A stretch of 64,000 nucleotides of DNA, from positions 255,112 through 319,111 of the forward strand of contig NZ_JAUNTS010000001.1 in the NCBI RefSeq assembly GCF_030538595.1. Reading direction: 5' to 3'. Shown here in pieces: positions 59,947 to 64,000 of the stretch. A model generated the notes under the pieces. That model was not told the origin of the DNA and searched no databases. It saw nothing but the letters and a program-made list of their open reading frames with translations. Source of the stretch: Kocuria sp. (GTDB lineage Bacteria > Actinomycetota > Actinomycetes > Actinomycetales > Micrococcaceae). The stretch's first letter is position 1; each line of letters starts with the position of its first letter. Position numbers and translations under genes: made by a program.

Positions 59947-60010
59947 AGGTTGGATGGGGAAACCCGTGACTGACGTTGTTCAAACGTTGATCACGGGCCC
60001 TCATCACGAG

Positions 60011-60082
60011 AGCCCCGACCGGGAATCGATCCCGGGACCTCCATCTTACCAAGATGGCGCTCTACCACTGAGCTATCGGGGC
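60011..60082 (-). tRNA. trnT: tRNA-Thr (GGT)
   Basis: Minus strand: acceptor GCCCCGA / TCGGGGC, D-arm GCTCAGTGGTAGAGC, anticodon arm CCATCTTGGTAAGATGG with GGT, T-arm CCGGGATCGATTCCCGG. 72 nt. It lies 64 bp upstream of tRNA-Met in the same direction and probably shares its transcript. Confidence 0.96.
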
Positions 60083-60121: not shown

Positions 60122-60126
60122 AACGG
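60122..60126 (+). repeat. Left target-site duplication AACGG
   Basis: AACGG abuts the left end of the composite element (60127). The same five bases abut its right end at 63490-63494. Inner ends of the two insertion sequences lack a matching pair. Confidence 0.6.
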
Positions 60127-61500
60127 CGCGTTGACTCATCCAAGATGCCCGCGTGGAGTGCTTCGTTGACTCACCTCAAAGTACCCGCGTGGGTCCAGGG
60201 TGAGTGGATGGAGTTGGAATTGGCTCAACGCAAGGCGATCTTGGCCTCGCAGGTGAAGAAGTGACCCAAGGCCACCAAACAAGAGAAAACCGAGATCCTG
60301 GACGCGATCTGCCAGGTCACCCGGTGGCATCGCGACCACGCCCGCAAAATGATCCGACAACGAGTGGCAGGCATCGAGTCTGGTCCTCGCCAGCCTCGGG
60401 AACCGGTAATCACCTACAACGAGGACGTGATCGCTGTACTAGTGCGATGTTGGGCACTGTTGGATGGCCCCACAGGCAAACGCCTCCAACCAGCCCTACC
60501 GCAGCTGCTCGACTCACTGCGCGCGCATGACCGACTCGACGCTAGCGACGATGTAGTCGAGGCGTTGCTGCGGATGTCACCAGCCACCATCGACCGGCGC
60601 CTACAGCCCTACCGAGTAGGGCTGGTCTCATCCAAAGGAATATGTCACACCCGACCCGGGTCGATCCTCAAGGCCAGCACCCCGATCAAGACCTGGGCCG
60701 AATGGGACCAGACCGAACCTGGCTTCGTGCAGATCGACCTGGTCGGGCACGAGGGCGGTGACAACAACGGGGTGTTCCACTTCAGCCTAGATGTCACCGA
60801 CATCGCCACCGGGTGGACCGAAGCGATCAGCATCCGCAGCAAAGGCGAACGCATCGTGCGCACCGGACTGGAAGAACTACACCTGCGTTTCCCGTTTGCG
60901 ATCCAAGGAATCCATTCCGATAACGGCAGCGAGTTCATCAACCACCACCTCCAGAAATGGTGCGCCCTGCACGAGATCACCTACACACGAGGCCGCCCAA
61001 CCCGATCCAACGACCAAGCCCACATCGAGCAGAAGAACTGGGCCATGGTCCGCCGCTGTGTCGGCTACAACCGCTACGACACCGCCCGCGAACTGGAGTT
61101 ACTCAACCAGCTCTGGCCCCTGGAATCGACCATGACGAACCTGTTCATCCCCCAACAAAAACTCGCCACCAAAACACGCATCGGTGCGAAAGTCACCAAG
61201 ACCTACGACACCGCCACCACCCCATACCAGCGGATCCTGCGCGATCACCCCGACATGCTGGACGCCTCTGACAGCAAAGCCCTGGCACAGCGACTTGCCC
61301 AGGCCGACCCCGTGGCTATTCGTGAACAGATCGCGCTGATCCAAGCCAATCTGCTGGAACTGGCCCGACGCCGAGGCAACGTTGAACGCAAAGCCAAACG
61401 CAACGCCGTTTACCTCTCAAGAACCAAGCTCACCAAACGGGCATCTTGAGATGAGTCAACGACCCCCAACCACGCGGGCACCTTGACATGAGTCAACAGG
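60127..61500 (+). mobile_element. Insertion sequence, left copy (1374 bp)
   Basis: Carries one long frame for a DDE transposase. Each end holds two tandem copies of a 27-28 bp motif of type GTTGACTCAnnTCAAGrTGC plus CCGCGTGG: left at 60130-60156 and 60165-60192, right (inverted) at 61433-61460 and 61470-61497. Family not certain; an integrase-core type such as the ISNCY or IS481 groups is plausible. Confidence 0.8.
60349..61449 (+). CDS. DDE transposase (integrase core), left copy; longer frame broken by TGA
   Basis: 366 residues from the ATG at 60349. The likely catalytic triad lies in FVQIDLVGHEGGDNNG (Asp), IHSDNGSEFINHHLQKWC (Asp) and NDQAHIEQKNWAMVRR (Glu). The same frame runs back to an ATG at 60208, with AGGG seven bases upstream, but is interrupted by TGA at 60262-60264 (codon 19). 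The missing part (KATKQEKTEILDAICQVTRW) looks like the N-terminal DNA-binding region. Whether it is a pseudogene, a readthrough product or an internal-start protein is open. Confidence 0.7.
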   Translation: MIRQRVAGIESGPRQPREPVITYNEDVIAVLVRCWALLDGPTGKRLQPALPQLLDSLRAHDRLDASDDVVEALLRMSPATIDRRLQPYRVGLVSSKGICHTRPGSILKASTPIKTWAEWDQTEPGFVQIDLVGHEGGDNNGVFHFSLDVTDIATGWTEAISIRSKGERIVRTGLEELHLRFPFAIQGIHSDNGSEFINHHLQKWCALHEITYTRGRPTRSNDQAHIEQKNWAMVRRCVGYNRYDTARELELLNQLWPLESTMTNLFIPQQKLATKTRIGAKVTKTYDTATTPYQRILRDHPDMLDASDSKALAQRLAQADPVAIREQIALIQANLLELARRRGNVERKAKRNAVYLSRTKLTKRAS

Positions 61501-61585
61501 ACGCCAGTGACCGCTCTGGGCCACTACTATCGCACCGTCTCGACTGCTCGCTTCGCTAGAGCGATGACTGCTCGGAGAGACCTCG

Positions 61586-61882
61586 TCAGAGGTGTCGGTC
61601 AGGGTCCATTCGCTGATGCAGGATGCGGATGATGTCCACAGCTTTGGCAGCATCGTTCACGCGATAGAACAGCGTGTGGCTCACGACGCTGTAGCTCGAG
61701 TAGCCCTCCCGGATCTCGTCTCGGGCGCGACCTCGGCGCGGATCTTCAGCGACTCGCTCGACTGCAGCTCGGATCTCACCAATGTACGTCTCAGCCTGCT
61801 GGACGTCCCAGCGCTCTGCGGTGTAGTCCCAGATCGAGGAGAGGTCTCGCTGTGCGGCTGGGGTGAGGCGGTAGCCGGTCAT
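61586..61882 (-). CDS. parE: ParE/RelE-family toxin
   Basis: 98 residues of the RelE/ParE fold: YRLTPAAQRDLSSIWDYTAE at the N-terminus, the central RAAVERVAEDPRRGRARDEI, and HTLFYRVNDAAKAVDIIRIL HQRMDPDRHL at the end (in two parts). ParE toxins poison DNA gyrase; RelE relatives cut mRNA. The ATG overlaps the antitoxin stop by 4 bp (ATGA), the usual antitoxin-first coupling. It lies between two insertion sequences. Confidence 0.88.
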   Translation of the reverse strand: MTGYRLTPAAQRDLSSIWDYTAERWDVQQAETYIGEIRAAVERVAEDPRRGRARDEIREGYSSYSVVSHTLFYRVNDAAKAVDIIRILHQRMDPDRHL

Positions 61883-62112
61883 GCCTTCTTCGCCGCGACG
61901 AAGGCGTCGAAGTCGAAGGGCTCTGCCTCGCCGCTGGCCTCACCCTCGGCAAGCGCCGAACGCAGTGCTGCCAGCTGAGTCTCCTGGTCCTCCAAGAGGC
62001 GCAGCCCCGCTCGGACGACTTCGCTCGCAGAGCGGTAACGGCCCGAGGAGATCTCCTGTGCGAGGAAACCGGTGAAGTGGTCATCCAGGCTGATCGAGGT
62101 GTTCTGTGCCAT
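61879..62112 (-). CDS. parD: ParD-family antitoxin
   Basis: 77 residues from the ATG at 62112. The ribbon-helix-helix DNA-binding part is QNTSISLDDHFTGFLAQEIS with SGRYRSASEVVRAGLRLLED after it; the acidic C-terminus (EAEPFDFDAFVAAKKA) is the toxin-neutralising region. It would bind and repress its own promoter, which must lie in 62113-62155, close to or inside the left end of the right-hand insertion sequence. A longer frame to 62169 is less likely. Confidence 0.88.
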   Translation of the reverse strand: MAQNTSISLDDHFTGFLAQEISSGRYRSASEVVRAGLRLLEDQETQLAALRSALAEGEASGEAEPFDFDAFVAAKKA

Positions 62113-62152
62113 GGCGCAAGAATACCAAGGATTGGTACTCACGTGAAGGTCC

Positions 62153-63489
62153 CGCGTTGACTCATCCAAGATGCCCGCGTGGAGTGCTTCGTTGACTCAC
62201 CTCAAAGTACCCGCGTGGGTCCAGGGTGAGTGGATGGAGTTGGAATTGGCTCAACGCAAGGCGATCTTGGCCTCGCAGGTGAAGAAGTGACCCAAGGCCA
62301 CCAAACAAGAGAAAACCGAGATCCTGGACGCGATCTGCCAGGTCACCCGGTGGCATCGCGACCACGCCCGCAAAATGATCCGACAACGAGTGGCAGGCAT
62401 CGAGTCTGGTCCTCGCCAGCCTCGGGAACCGGTAATCACCTACAACGAGGACGTGATCGCTGTACTAGTGCGATGTTGGGCACTGTTGGATGGCCCCACA
62501 GGCAAACGCCTCCAACCAGCCCTACCGCAGCTGCTCGACTCACTGCGCGCGCATGACCGACTCGACGCTAGCGACGATGTAGTCGAGGCGTTGCTGCGGA
62601 TGTCACCAGCCACCATCGACCGGCGCCTACAGCCCTACCGAGTAGGGCTGGTCTCATCCAAAGGAATATGTCACACCCGACCCGGGTCGATCCTCAAGGC
62701 CAGCACCCCGATCAAGACCTGGGCCGAATGGGACCAGACCGAACCTGGCTTCGTGCAGATCGACCTGGTCGGGCACGAGGGCGGTGACAACAACGGGGTG
62801 TTCCACTTCAGCCTAGATGTCACCGACATCGCCACCGGGTGGACCGAAGCGATCAGCATCCGCAGCAAAGGCGAACGCATCGTGCGCACCGGACTGGAAG
62901 AACTACACCTGCGTTTCCCGTTTGCGATCCAAGGAATCCATTCCGATAACGGCAGCGAGTTCATCAACCACCACCTCCAGAAATGGTGCGCCCTGCACGA
63001 GATCACCTACACACGAGGCCGCCCAACCCGATCCAACGACCAAGCCCACATCGAGCAGAAGAACTGGGCCATGGTCCGCCGCTGTGTCGGCTACAACCGC
63101 TACGACACCGCCCGCGAACTGGAGTTACTCAACCAGCTCTGGCCCCTGGAATCGACCATGACGAACCTGTTCATCCCCCAACAAAAACTCGCCACCAAAA
63201 CACGCATCGGTGCGAAAGTCACCAAGACCTACGACACCGCCACCACCCCATACCAGCGGATCCTGCGCGATCACCCCGACATGCTGGACGCCTCTGACAG
63301 CAAAGCCCTGGCACAGCGACTTGCCCAGGCCGACCCCGTGGCTATTCGTGAACAGATCGCGCTGATCCAAGCCAATCTGCTGGAACTGGCCCGACGCCGA
63401 GGCAACGTTGAACGCAAAGCCAAACGCAACGCCGTTTACCTCTCAAGAACCAAGCTCACCAAACGGGCACCTTGACATGAGTCAACAGG
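62153..63489 (+). mobile_element. Insertion sequence, right copy (1337 bp)
   Basis: Same sequence as the left copy through the transposase gene as far as I can compare, in the same orientation. It is 37 bp shorter: the two right-end motifs of the left copy are replaced by one hybrid motif at 63459-63486, as recombination between them would give. Confidence 0.8.
62375..63475 (+). CDS. DDE transposase (integrase core), right copy; longer frame broken by TGA
   Basis: 366 residues, identical to the left copy except for the last residue (Pro instead of Ser), which the 37-bp deletion changed. The upstream frame from 62234 carries the same in-frame TGA at 62288-62290. Catalytic motifs as in the left copy. 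Confidence 0.7.
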   Translation: MIRQRVAGIESGPRQPREPVITYNEDVIAVLVRCWALLDGPTGKRLQPALPQLLDSLRAHDRLDASDDVVEALLRMSPATIDRRLQPYRVGLVSSKGICHTRPGSILKASTPIKTWAEWDQTEPGFVQIDLVGHEGGDNNGVFHFSLDVTDIATGWTEAISIRSKGERIVRTGLEELHLRFPFAIQGIHSDNGSEFINHHLQKWCALHEITYTRGRPTRSNDQAHIEQKNWAMVRRCVGYNRYDTARELELLNQLWPLESTMTNLFIPQQKLATKTRIGAKVTKTYDTATTPYQRILRDHPDMLDASDSKALAQRLAQADPVAIREQIALIQANLLELARRRGNVERKAKRNAVYLSRTKLTKRAP

Positions 63490-63494
63490 AACGG
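63490..63494 (+). repeat. Right target-site duplication AACGG
   Basis: AACGG directly after the right end of the composite element, matching 60122-60126 on the other side. Confidence 0.6.
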
Positions 63495-63553: not shown

Positions 63554-64000
63554 TCAGTCGTCGTCCCAGTCATCGTCATCCCAGTCGTCATCGTCCCAAT
63601 CGTCGTCGTCCCAGTCGCCGCTGTATACGTAGTTGGGAGCAGGCTGAACGGGTACGGGCACCTGAGCGGGGGCGGCCGGAGCAGGCGCCGGTGCAGCGGG
63701 AGCTTGTGCAGGGACCGCGGGGGCTTCGGCGGCATCCGCTGAGGCGTCACCCTGGGAGGTTTCAGCGTTGCCTGCATCCGCAGAAGACTCGTCATCTTGG
63801 CCGGTCTGCCCCTCCCCCGGGGTGCTCACGGTGCCTGACGGGCTGGGTGAGGAGGACGACGCCGGACCACTTTCGACCACCACGCCGTCACGCAAAATCT
63901 GGGAATCTGATGGGGCAGCCGCTGCGATCCACAAGAAGATCGCCACCGCGCCCACCACCACCAAGCTGAGTGTGGACCATAAAACCTTCATGGCATCCAT
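63554..64000 (-). CDS. Membrane-anchored protein with Pro/Ala linker and WDDDD repeat tail
   Basis: 148 residues as far as the window shows; the ATG used lies on the last three bases, so the true start could be further upstream. One N-terminal membrane helix (about 6-26, LWSTLSLVVVGAVAIFLWIA) is followed by a Ser/Glu/Asp region, a Pro/Ala/Gln stretch (about 90-120) and the C-terminal repeats GDWDDDDWDDDDWDDDDWDD D. Topology suggests the acidic tail is outside the membrane, perhaps across the cell wall. No family recognised. Confidence 0.72.
   Translation of the reverse strand: MDAMKVLWSTLSLVVVGAVAIFLWIAAAAPSDSQILRDGVVVESGPASSSSPSPSGTVSTPGEGQTGQDDESSADAGNAETSQGDASADAAEAPAVPAQAPAAPAPAPAAPAQVPVPVQPAPNYVYSGDWDDDDWDDDDWDDDDWDDD
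63557..63615 (-). repeat. 15-bp tandem repeats encoding WDDDD
   Basis: About four tandem copies of a 15-bp unit (TGGGACGACGATGAC with silent changes on the minus strand), ending two or three bases before the stop codon. Copy-number variation by slippage is likely. Confidence 0.75.

What the first reader, a model, noticed from the sequence alone, without database searches (positions are those of the whole stretch)
60122..63494. Toxin-antitoxin module carried by a composite transposon with its own target duplication
Seen: two direct IS copies offset by 2026 bp, parDE as the only cargo, AACGG on both outer sides, no matching pair at the inner ends (ACGCC after the left copy, GGTCC before the right). 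Inference: IS-parDE-IS moved as one unit. A cargo consisting only of an addiction module would penalise cells that lose the element by recombination between the two copies, giving a self-stabilising element. A 5-bp match alone could be chance.
Basis: partly seen in the sequence, partly recalled or inferred. Interest (0 to 1): 0.85.

Follow-up and report, generated by a model that had tools for sequence, protein, structure and literature searches.

The report
Stranded composite transposon carrying parDE
Two copies of a jumping gene bracket a toxin-antitoxin pair and the whole block appears to have jumped as one piece next to a tRNA gene, but both jumping genes now carry the same stop, so it is an ordinary kind of element that looks stuck in place.

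Summary
Two direct IS copies (60127-61500; 62153-63489) flank 652 bp whose only recognisable genes are parD and parE. In related IS the same tips are followed by an exact 5-bp target duplication in 32 of 65 testable loci, against 11 hits summed over 12 shifted registers. In that register our outer 5-mers match (AACGG/AACGG); the inner ones (ACGCC, GGTCC) do not. All 19 same-genus loci examined have an empty site, with AACG native in 11. One-unit insertion is the best reading; unequal inner 5-mers argue against simple plasmid capture at an IS.

Two facts were missed. Both copies carry the same in-frame stop near the transposase N-terminus, where 7 of 8 close relatives have Trp, and the right copy has lost 37 bp, one of two right-end repeats. 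No intact copy was found in this draft genome, so the element looks stranded. The IS-parDE pairing was seen in none of 97 related-IS loci or 14 related parDE loci. The addiction effect is plausible but untested. Verdict: a real composite transposon of an ordinary kind.

The parts
60122..60126 (.). left copy of the 5-bp target duplication AACGG
   Evidence: AACG stands at the matching place in 11 of 19 same-genus empty sites (read by eye)
60127..61500 (+). left IS copy, 1374 bp, tips CGCGTTGACTC / GAGTCAACAGG, two repeats at each end
   Evidence: tips by comparison with related IS
60262..60264 (+). in-frame TGA in the left transposase frame (same codon in the right copy, 62288-62290)
   Evidence: identity of the copies; 7 of 8 close relatives inspected have Trp here, one Tyr
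60349..61449 (+). ATG-started remainder of the left transposase frame after the stop, rve domain, presumed DDE residues kept
61501..61505 (.). inner flank of left copy, ACGCC
61586..61882 (-). parE toxin gene, 98 aa
   Evidence: PF05016 83.3 bits
61879..62112 (-). parD antitoxin gene, 77 aa from ATG, overlapping parE by 4 bp
   Evidence: PF03693 123.9 bits and TIGR02606 98.2 bits; start placed
62123..62137 (.). palindrome TACCAA-GGA-TTGGTA just upstream of parD, probable autoregulatory operator (inference)
62148..62152 (.). inner flank of right copy, GGTCC
62153..63489 (+). right IS copy, 1337 bp, identical to the left copy for 1317 bp, then lacking 37 bp (one right-end repeat)
62375..63475 (+). 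ATG-started remainder of the right transposase frame, same stop upstream
63490..63494 (.). right copy of the 5-bp target duplication AACGG
60010..60082 (-). tRNA-Thr; the element begins 44 bp beyond its 5' end, on the presumed promoter side
   Evidence: promoter not tested

Best explanation
A 3363-bp composite transposon (60127-63489): two direct copies of one rve/DDE-type IS around a parDE toxin-antitoxin operon. Shown: anatomy, fixed-register outer 5-bp duplication, no inner duplication, empty site in related species, shared stop in both transposase frames. Inferred: the IS first inserted on both sides of a parDE operon elsewhere (the inner 5-mers ACGCC and GGTCC are left over from those insertions); a full-length transposase, in cis before the stop arose or in trans, then used the outermost ends to insert the whole block at AACGG upstream of tRNA-Thr. 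Afterwards (or before, with help in trans) the transposase acquired its stop, now in both copies by common descent or gene conversion, and the outer right end lost one of its two repeats. ParD would bind ParE and repress the operon through the palindrome upstream of parD; recombination between the IS copies would delete parDE and expose the cell to leftover ParE, which would favour retention. That last step is plausible and untested.
For: Ours fits exactly: AACGG|CGCGTTGACTC...CAACAGG|AACGG. The inner 5-mers differ, as expected for two independent donor insertions. Empty site in 19 of 19 same-genus loci examined, AACG present in 11 and AACGG in 3. G017, the genus relative with the best flank match, keeps both flanking sequences side by side. 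The full unit was found in none of the 26 other genus genomes searched; 4 of them gave weak partial matches. Target preference of relatives (A at -1 in 27 of 32; C at -3 in 22 of 32) is met moderately by the outer-left flank GCAAA (3.5% of window positions score as high) and well by the right copy's inner-left flank GTGAA (1.0%).
Against: No strain of the same species with the empty site, and no second copy of the unit, was available. The outer right end has only one repeat where 31 of 32 relatives have two 35-36 bp apart, so as it stands it may be a poor substrate; the deletion must then be later than the insertion. The same stop in both copies means that the copies duplicated after the transposase was broken, which fits recombination as well as transposition in trans, or that gene conversion occurred. 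A translocatable circle (IS-parDE) recombining into a pre-existing IS at this site would leave the same end product. In 33 of 65 testable relatives no duplication was seen, so missing inner duplications are weak evidence by themselves. The preferred base at -3 is C and ours is A; 6 of the 32 known sites also score below zero. The parDE-IS pairing was not seen to recur.
Confidence: 0.7

Rival explanations
1. Capture rather than composite transposition: a single IS sat at the tRNA site with its own AACGG duplication, and a plasmid or circle carrying parDE was joined to it by recombination between IS copies or by IS-mediated cointegration; the rest of the plasmid was then lost, parDE being kept because losing it is costly.
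For: ParE relatives are common on plasmids (689 of 72,556 plasmid records, all under 60% identity). Identical copies with the same stop fit recombination. IS-linked integration of a plasmid with an addiction-like module was seen in the laboratory for a restriction-modification system (PMC3031569, abstract: 24 of 28 products at a chromosomal IS1 or IS5). Rearrangement between IS copies of this group is suggested by a swapped 5-mer in G399.
Against: Both simple versions predict that the two inner 5-mers equal each other (reasoning from how such products form); they are ACGCC and GGTCC. A later deletion abutting an IS end, or a circle derived from an existing composite, must be added.
Confidence: 0.2
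2. Tandem duplication or unequal crossing-over of an IS-parDE unit in place, without transposition of the whole.
For: 2026-bp periodicity and 1317 bp of identity.
Against: There is only one parDE; the outer 5-bp duplication would have to belong to one original IS whose right flank was displaced; and a source of parDE at this site is missing, since the genus relatives examined have neither IS nor, at DNA level, this cargo.
Confidence: 0.06
3. Two unrelated insertions with a chance 5-bp match outside.
Against: Expected p about 0.0013 in the fixed register; the match is exactly between the two outermost flanks and in none of the other pairs.
Confidence: 0.02
4. Assembly artefact: one IS copy, or the identity of the copies, was produced by the assembler.
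For: 27-contig assembly with a 1317-bp perfect direct repeat; raw reads not available.
Against: The copies have different inner and outer surroundings and different right ends (37 bp), which a copied consensus would not produce.
Confidence: 0.02

Closest known systems
Composite (compound) transposons: two copies of one IS around passenger genes
   Same: two direct copies, passenger not needed for transposition, outer target duplication, no inner pair
   Different: passenger is only a toxin-antitoxin operon; both transposase frames are interrupted; one outer end shortened
Tn3-family transposons with embedded TA pairs, including parD-parE (Lima-Mendez 2020, PMC7157771; passages read)
   Same: ParE-ParD pair carried by a transposon and proposed to stabilise it (14 ParE-ParD instances in that collection)
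   Different: those TA pairs abut the res site and resolvase gene within one transposition module; here no such genes were found and the TA lies between two IS
TA cassettes in chromosomal integrons (PMC9137128, passages read)
   Same: TA pairs said there to prevent random deletion of cassettes lying between repeats
   Different: attC repeats and integrase instead of IS copies; large arrays
IS-linked movement of an addiction-like restriction-modification system (Takahashi 2011, PMC3031569; abstract read)
   Same: an IS and a post-segregational killing module move or persist together
   Different: laboratory plasmid integration, mainly at a chromosomal IS1 or IS5 copy; different module and IS
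IS1202 family (Harmer 2023, PMC10132070; abstract and sections 17-19 read)
   Same: 5-bp target duplication in its ISAjo2 type, an additional transposase-site repeat near each end, DDE transposase of similar size
   Different: tips are not TGT/ACA, and the residue seven after the presumed catalytic Glu is Val, not Gln; dif-like targets were not tested
IS481 family (NCBIfam NF033577)
   Same: weak profile similarity, rve core
   Different: 50.3 bits against a cut-off of 224

Membership tests
Composite transposon | two copies of one IS flanking non-transposition genes | tested here: met
Composite transposon | target duplication of the IS's length at the outer ends only | tested here: met
Composite transposon | empty target site in relatives | tested here: met
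   19 of 19 same-genus loci examined, other species only; exact junction of this species not seen
Composite transposon | same unit at another site, or shown to move | tested here: inconclusive
   not in 26 other genus genomes; no plasmid record with one place covering 80% of the unit; movement itself not testable here
Composite transposon | at least one working transposase (needed for an active element, not for the structural class) | tested here: not met
   same in-frame stop in both copies; no other full copy in the genome as held: hence filed as a stranded composite, not an active one
[quoted passage not shown]
   Val at that place in 8 of 8 aligned sequences, against the rule; the Glu is identified by position in the motif
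IS1202 family | outer ends 5'-TGT and ACA-3' | tested here: not met
   tips set by the duplications are CGCG.../...CAGG
IS1202 family | additional transposase-site repeat near each end | tested here: met
   inner-left motif in 32 of 32, inner-right at 35-36 bp in 31 of 32 relatives; left copy both, right copy left only; binding not tested
IS1202 family | insertion beside dif-like sites (ISAjo2 type) | not tested
   no search made
IS481 family | NCBIfam NF033577 curated score | tested here: not met
   50.3 vs 224 bits, on the part after the stop
ParDE type II toxin-antitoxin | ParE_toxin and ParD_antitoxin domains in adjacent genes | tested here: met
ParDE type II toxin-antitoxin | toxin inhibits growth and is neutralised by the antitoxin | not testable with these tools
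   needs an expression assay
Tn3-family TA transposon | Tn3 transposase and resolvase beside the TA pair | tested here: not met
   the cargo holds only parD and parE as recognisable genes and the flanking transposase is rve-type

The most novel reading that the evidence does not exclude
A minimal 'addiction transposon': a composite whose only passenger is parDE, so that the passenger's sole service is to kill cells in which recombination between the two IS copies deletes it; it would have persisted even after its transposases died, because loss is lethal.
Probability: 0.25. Interest if true: 0.5.

Novelty: new member of a known kind. Interest (0 to 1): 0.3.

Why it matters
It is a clean, small case in which a toxin-antitoxin pair is the only recognisable passenger of a composite transposon with a checkable target duplication. 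That makes the question 'can a TA module alone keep an IS pair from collapsing to one copy?' directly testable at one locus. The comparison also yields rules for a poorly classified IS group, found mostly in actinobacteria here: exact tips, 5-bp duplication, paired end repeats and a CAA-like target preference.

Tried and rejected
Chance 5-mer: made unlikely by the fixed-register control. Insertion targeted to sequences resembling the IS's own left end: over 32 loci the mean match was 3.78 of 13 against 3.31 for shifted controls; the excess came from four loci, two tandem re-insertions (L120, L122) and two beside end-like sequence (L126, L130). Our 7 of 13 was equalled at two other shifts in the same flank, so it was dropped. 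Recurrent parDE-IS partnership: none in 97 related-IS loci (80 genome and 17 viral, many of the viral ones only partly related; limited to the fetched flanks, at most 5 kb or 4 kb and shorter at contig ends), nor in 14 related parDE loci (about 1.5 kb flanks; one 9-base left-end motif match in L112, no transposase). The first parD query, was one base out of frame and was corrected; parE hits were unaffected. Viral contigs: no relative with the single protein, 17 mostly distant ones with the alignment. Solved structures: no sequence match for the transposase profile at E 0.01. Known IS1202-family records for direct comparison could not be fetched: two accessions are not in the collections. Literature searches for a TA-only composite transposon listed 16, 1, 10 and 5 papers. 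I saw titles and abstract starts of these and passages of PMC9137128 and PMC8987985, and the abstract of PMC3031569; none of what I saw described one. This does not show that none is in print. PMC10045372 and PMC12548467 were also seen in passages, without effect on the verdict.

Rows dropped before counts: 15 of 80 genome loci had no recognisable pair of ends and were left out of the 65. A hit there means any left-right pair of candidate ends in the locus. The 65 and the 32 include several copies from single genomes (for example Micropruina), so they are not independent. One search kept the best 80 of at least 528 confirmed loci. Of the 20 relatives, 10 had the duplication by eye, 2 matched at 4 of 5 (L100, L101), L086, L087 and L091 had none, L089 and L090 share one between them, and L095, L096 and L099 could not be assessed from what was printed. 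In one search, 19 same-genus loci were examined: those fetched, out of 24 other genus genomes with a hit there; L023 reaches only 178 bp beyond the anchor.
Full report
What is there. The window lies in contig C12 of a 3.14-Mb, 27-contig genome. Two direct IS copies start at 60127 and 62153, 2026 bp apart. They are identical for 1317 bp (60127-61443 and 62153-63469). The left copy then continues with two right-end repeats, while the right copy lacks 37 bp and keeps one fused repeat. Left copy: 60127-61500; right copy: 62153-63489. Between them are 652 bp with parE (61586-61882, minus; PF05016, 83.3 bits) and parD (61879-62112, minus; PF03693, 123.9 bits), and a palindrome TACCAAGGATTGGTA at 62123-62137 upstream of parD, probably its operator (inference). 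The block begins 44 bp beyond the 5' end of a tRNA-Thr gene (60010-60082, minus).

Fixing the tips. Of 20 related copies fetched from the same order, 10 showed by eye a 5-bp duplication, 6 bp outside GACTC on the left and 6 bp outside GAG[GT]C (or its variant) on the right. Two more matched at 4 of 5, three had none, two shared one between them and three could not be assessed. I applied that rule to 80 loci from a genome-wide scan. Of 65 with recognisable ends, 32 had an exact 5-bp duplication at that register; the twelve shifted registers gave 0, 0, 0, 0, 1, 1, 1, 1, 1, 1, 2 and 3 hits, 11 in all. Two of the 32 are loci from which the rule had been read, and copies from one genome are not independent, but the contrast is large. 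In that register our element reads AACGG|CGCGTTGACTC...CAACAGG|AACGG outside, and ACGCC and GGTCC inside. The chance of an outer match is about 0.0013.

Empty site. In 19 of 19 same-genus loci examined, tblastn found no transposase in the locus and the IS left-end motif was absent from the 600 bp beyond the anchor, or from as much as the contig holds (L023 has only 178 bp). AACG stands at the matching place in 11 of 19, read by eye: AACGG in 3 (L011, L023, L028), AACGA in 7 and AACGC in 1. So the left 5-mer is probably native and the right one the duplicate. In G017, the genus relative with the best flank match, the left flank runs directly into the right-hand gene. The intergenic stretch just right of the element (63495 to about 63553) does not align with G017, so the exact empty junction of this species was not seen.

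Origin. Composite transposition predicts matching outer and unrelated inner 5-mers, as seen. Simple capture of a plasmid by recombination between IS copies, or by IS-mediated cointegration, predicts equal inner 5-mers, which is not seen; it can be rescued with a further deletion. Relatives prefer A at -1 (27 of 32), A at -2 (18 of 32) and C at -3 (22 of 32) before the duplication. The flank before GGTCC (GTGAA) scores as high as 1.0% of window positions and that before AACGG (GCAAA) as high as 3.5%; 6 of the 32 known sites score below zero. Both flanks are compatible with real insertions, the outer one only moderately.

State of the element. Both copies share an in-frame TGA near the transposase N-terminus. 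Of eight close relatives inspected (60-67% identity), seven have Trp and one Tyr there; the seven relatives aligned have Tyr. The first start after the stop is the ATG at 60349, which would omit the N-terminal part; the presumed DDE residues remain. In the genome as held, DNA search finds no other full copy, only a 79-bp and a 48-bp left-end remnant, a 32-bp match in C14, and matches of the inverted ends to each other; protein search finds only these two copies at E 1e-40. A copy in an assembly gap cannot be excluded. The right outer end lacks the inner repeat that 31 of 32 relatives have at 35-36 bp. The element therefore looks immobile now. The shared stop means duplication after the damage, or gene conversion; the data do not decide.

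Function of the cargo. parDE appears intact. That it stabilises the pair of IS copies by killing deletants is a reasonable inference from the biology of such modules, not a result. TA pairs in Tn3-family transposons have been proposed to stabilise them (PMC7157771, passages), TA cassettes are said to prevent deletion of integron cassettes (PMC9137128, passages), and a restriction-modification system has been seen to move with IS under selection (PMC3031569, abstract). The pairing of this IS with parDE was not found elsewhere: 0 of 97 related-IS loci, 0 of 14 related parDE loci, and none of the 26 other genus genomes has the unit, though 4 of them gave weak partial matches.

Classification. The IS is an rve/DDE element of a poorly classified group; the closest relatives, at about 67% amino-acid identity, are in Micropruina and Propionicicella. 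It resembles the IS1202 family in the 5-bp duplication and paired end repeats, but fails two of its stated hallmarks, and it scores far below the IS481 cut-off. I therefore leave it outside both.

Verdict. This is a new member of a known kind of element, of modest interest.

Noticed in passing
L120 and L122 (Micropruina glycogenica): Two copies of the related IS in tandem with a 5-bp spacer equal to the duplication, as if the second inserted into the very same site.
   Followed up: partly
L089 and L090 (G399): The 5-mer right of one IS copy (GGACA) equals the 5-mer left of another; L089's own two sides do not match and L090 lacks its right end: likely rearrangement between copies.
   Followed up: no
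L030 2199-2285 (G000:C16:166198 onward): A solo IS left end of 79 bp (95% identical) running into a right-end-like GAGTCAACGCGG, so it could be a mini-element; flank reads CAA|GCCAT, no duplication seen.
   Followed up: partly
L031 1342-1395 (G000:C18:127847-127894): Second left-end remnant, flank CAA|TTCGA; it lies 66 bp beyond the 5' end of a tRNA-Asn gene (L031 1203-1276, minus), much as the main element lies beside tRNA-Thr.
   Followed up: partly
32 related IS loci with duplications: The IS group inserts after a CAA-like motif followed by the 5 duplicated bases: C at -3 in 22, A at -2 in 18 and A at -1 in 27 of 32 loci; I made no literature search for this.
   Followed up: partly
63554-64000 (-), runs off the window: The gene beside the element encodes a protein with an Asp-rich repeat tail (DWDDD units) and no Pfam match at E 0.01; its DNA lies next to the tRNA flank in five related loci too (L010, L012, L013, L014, L016).
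   Followed up: no
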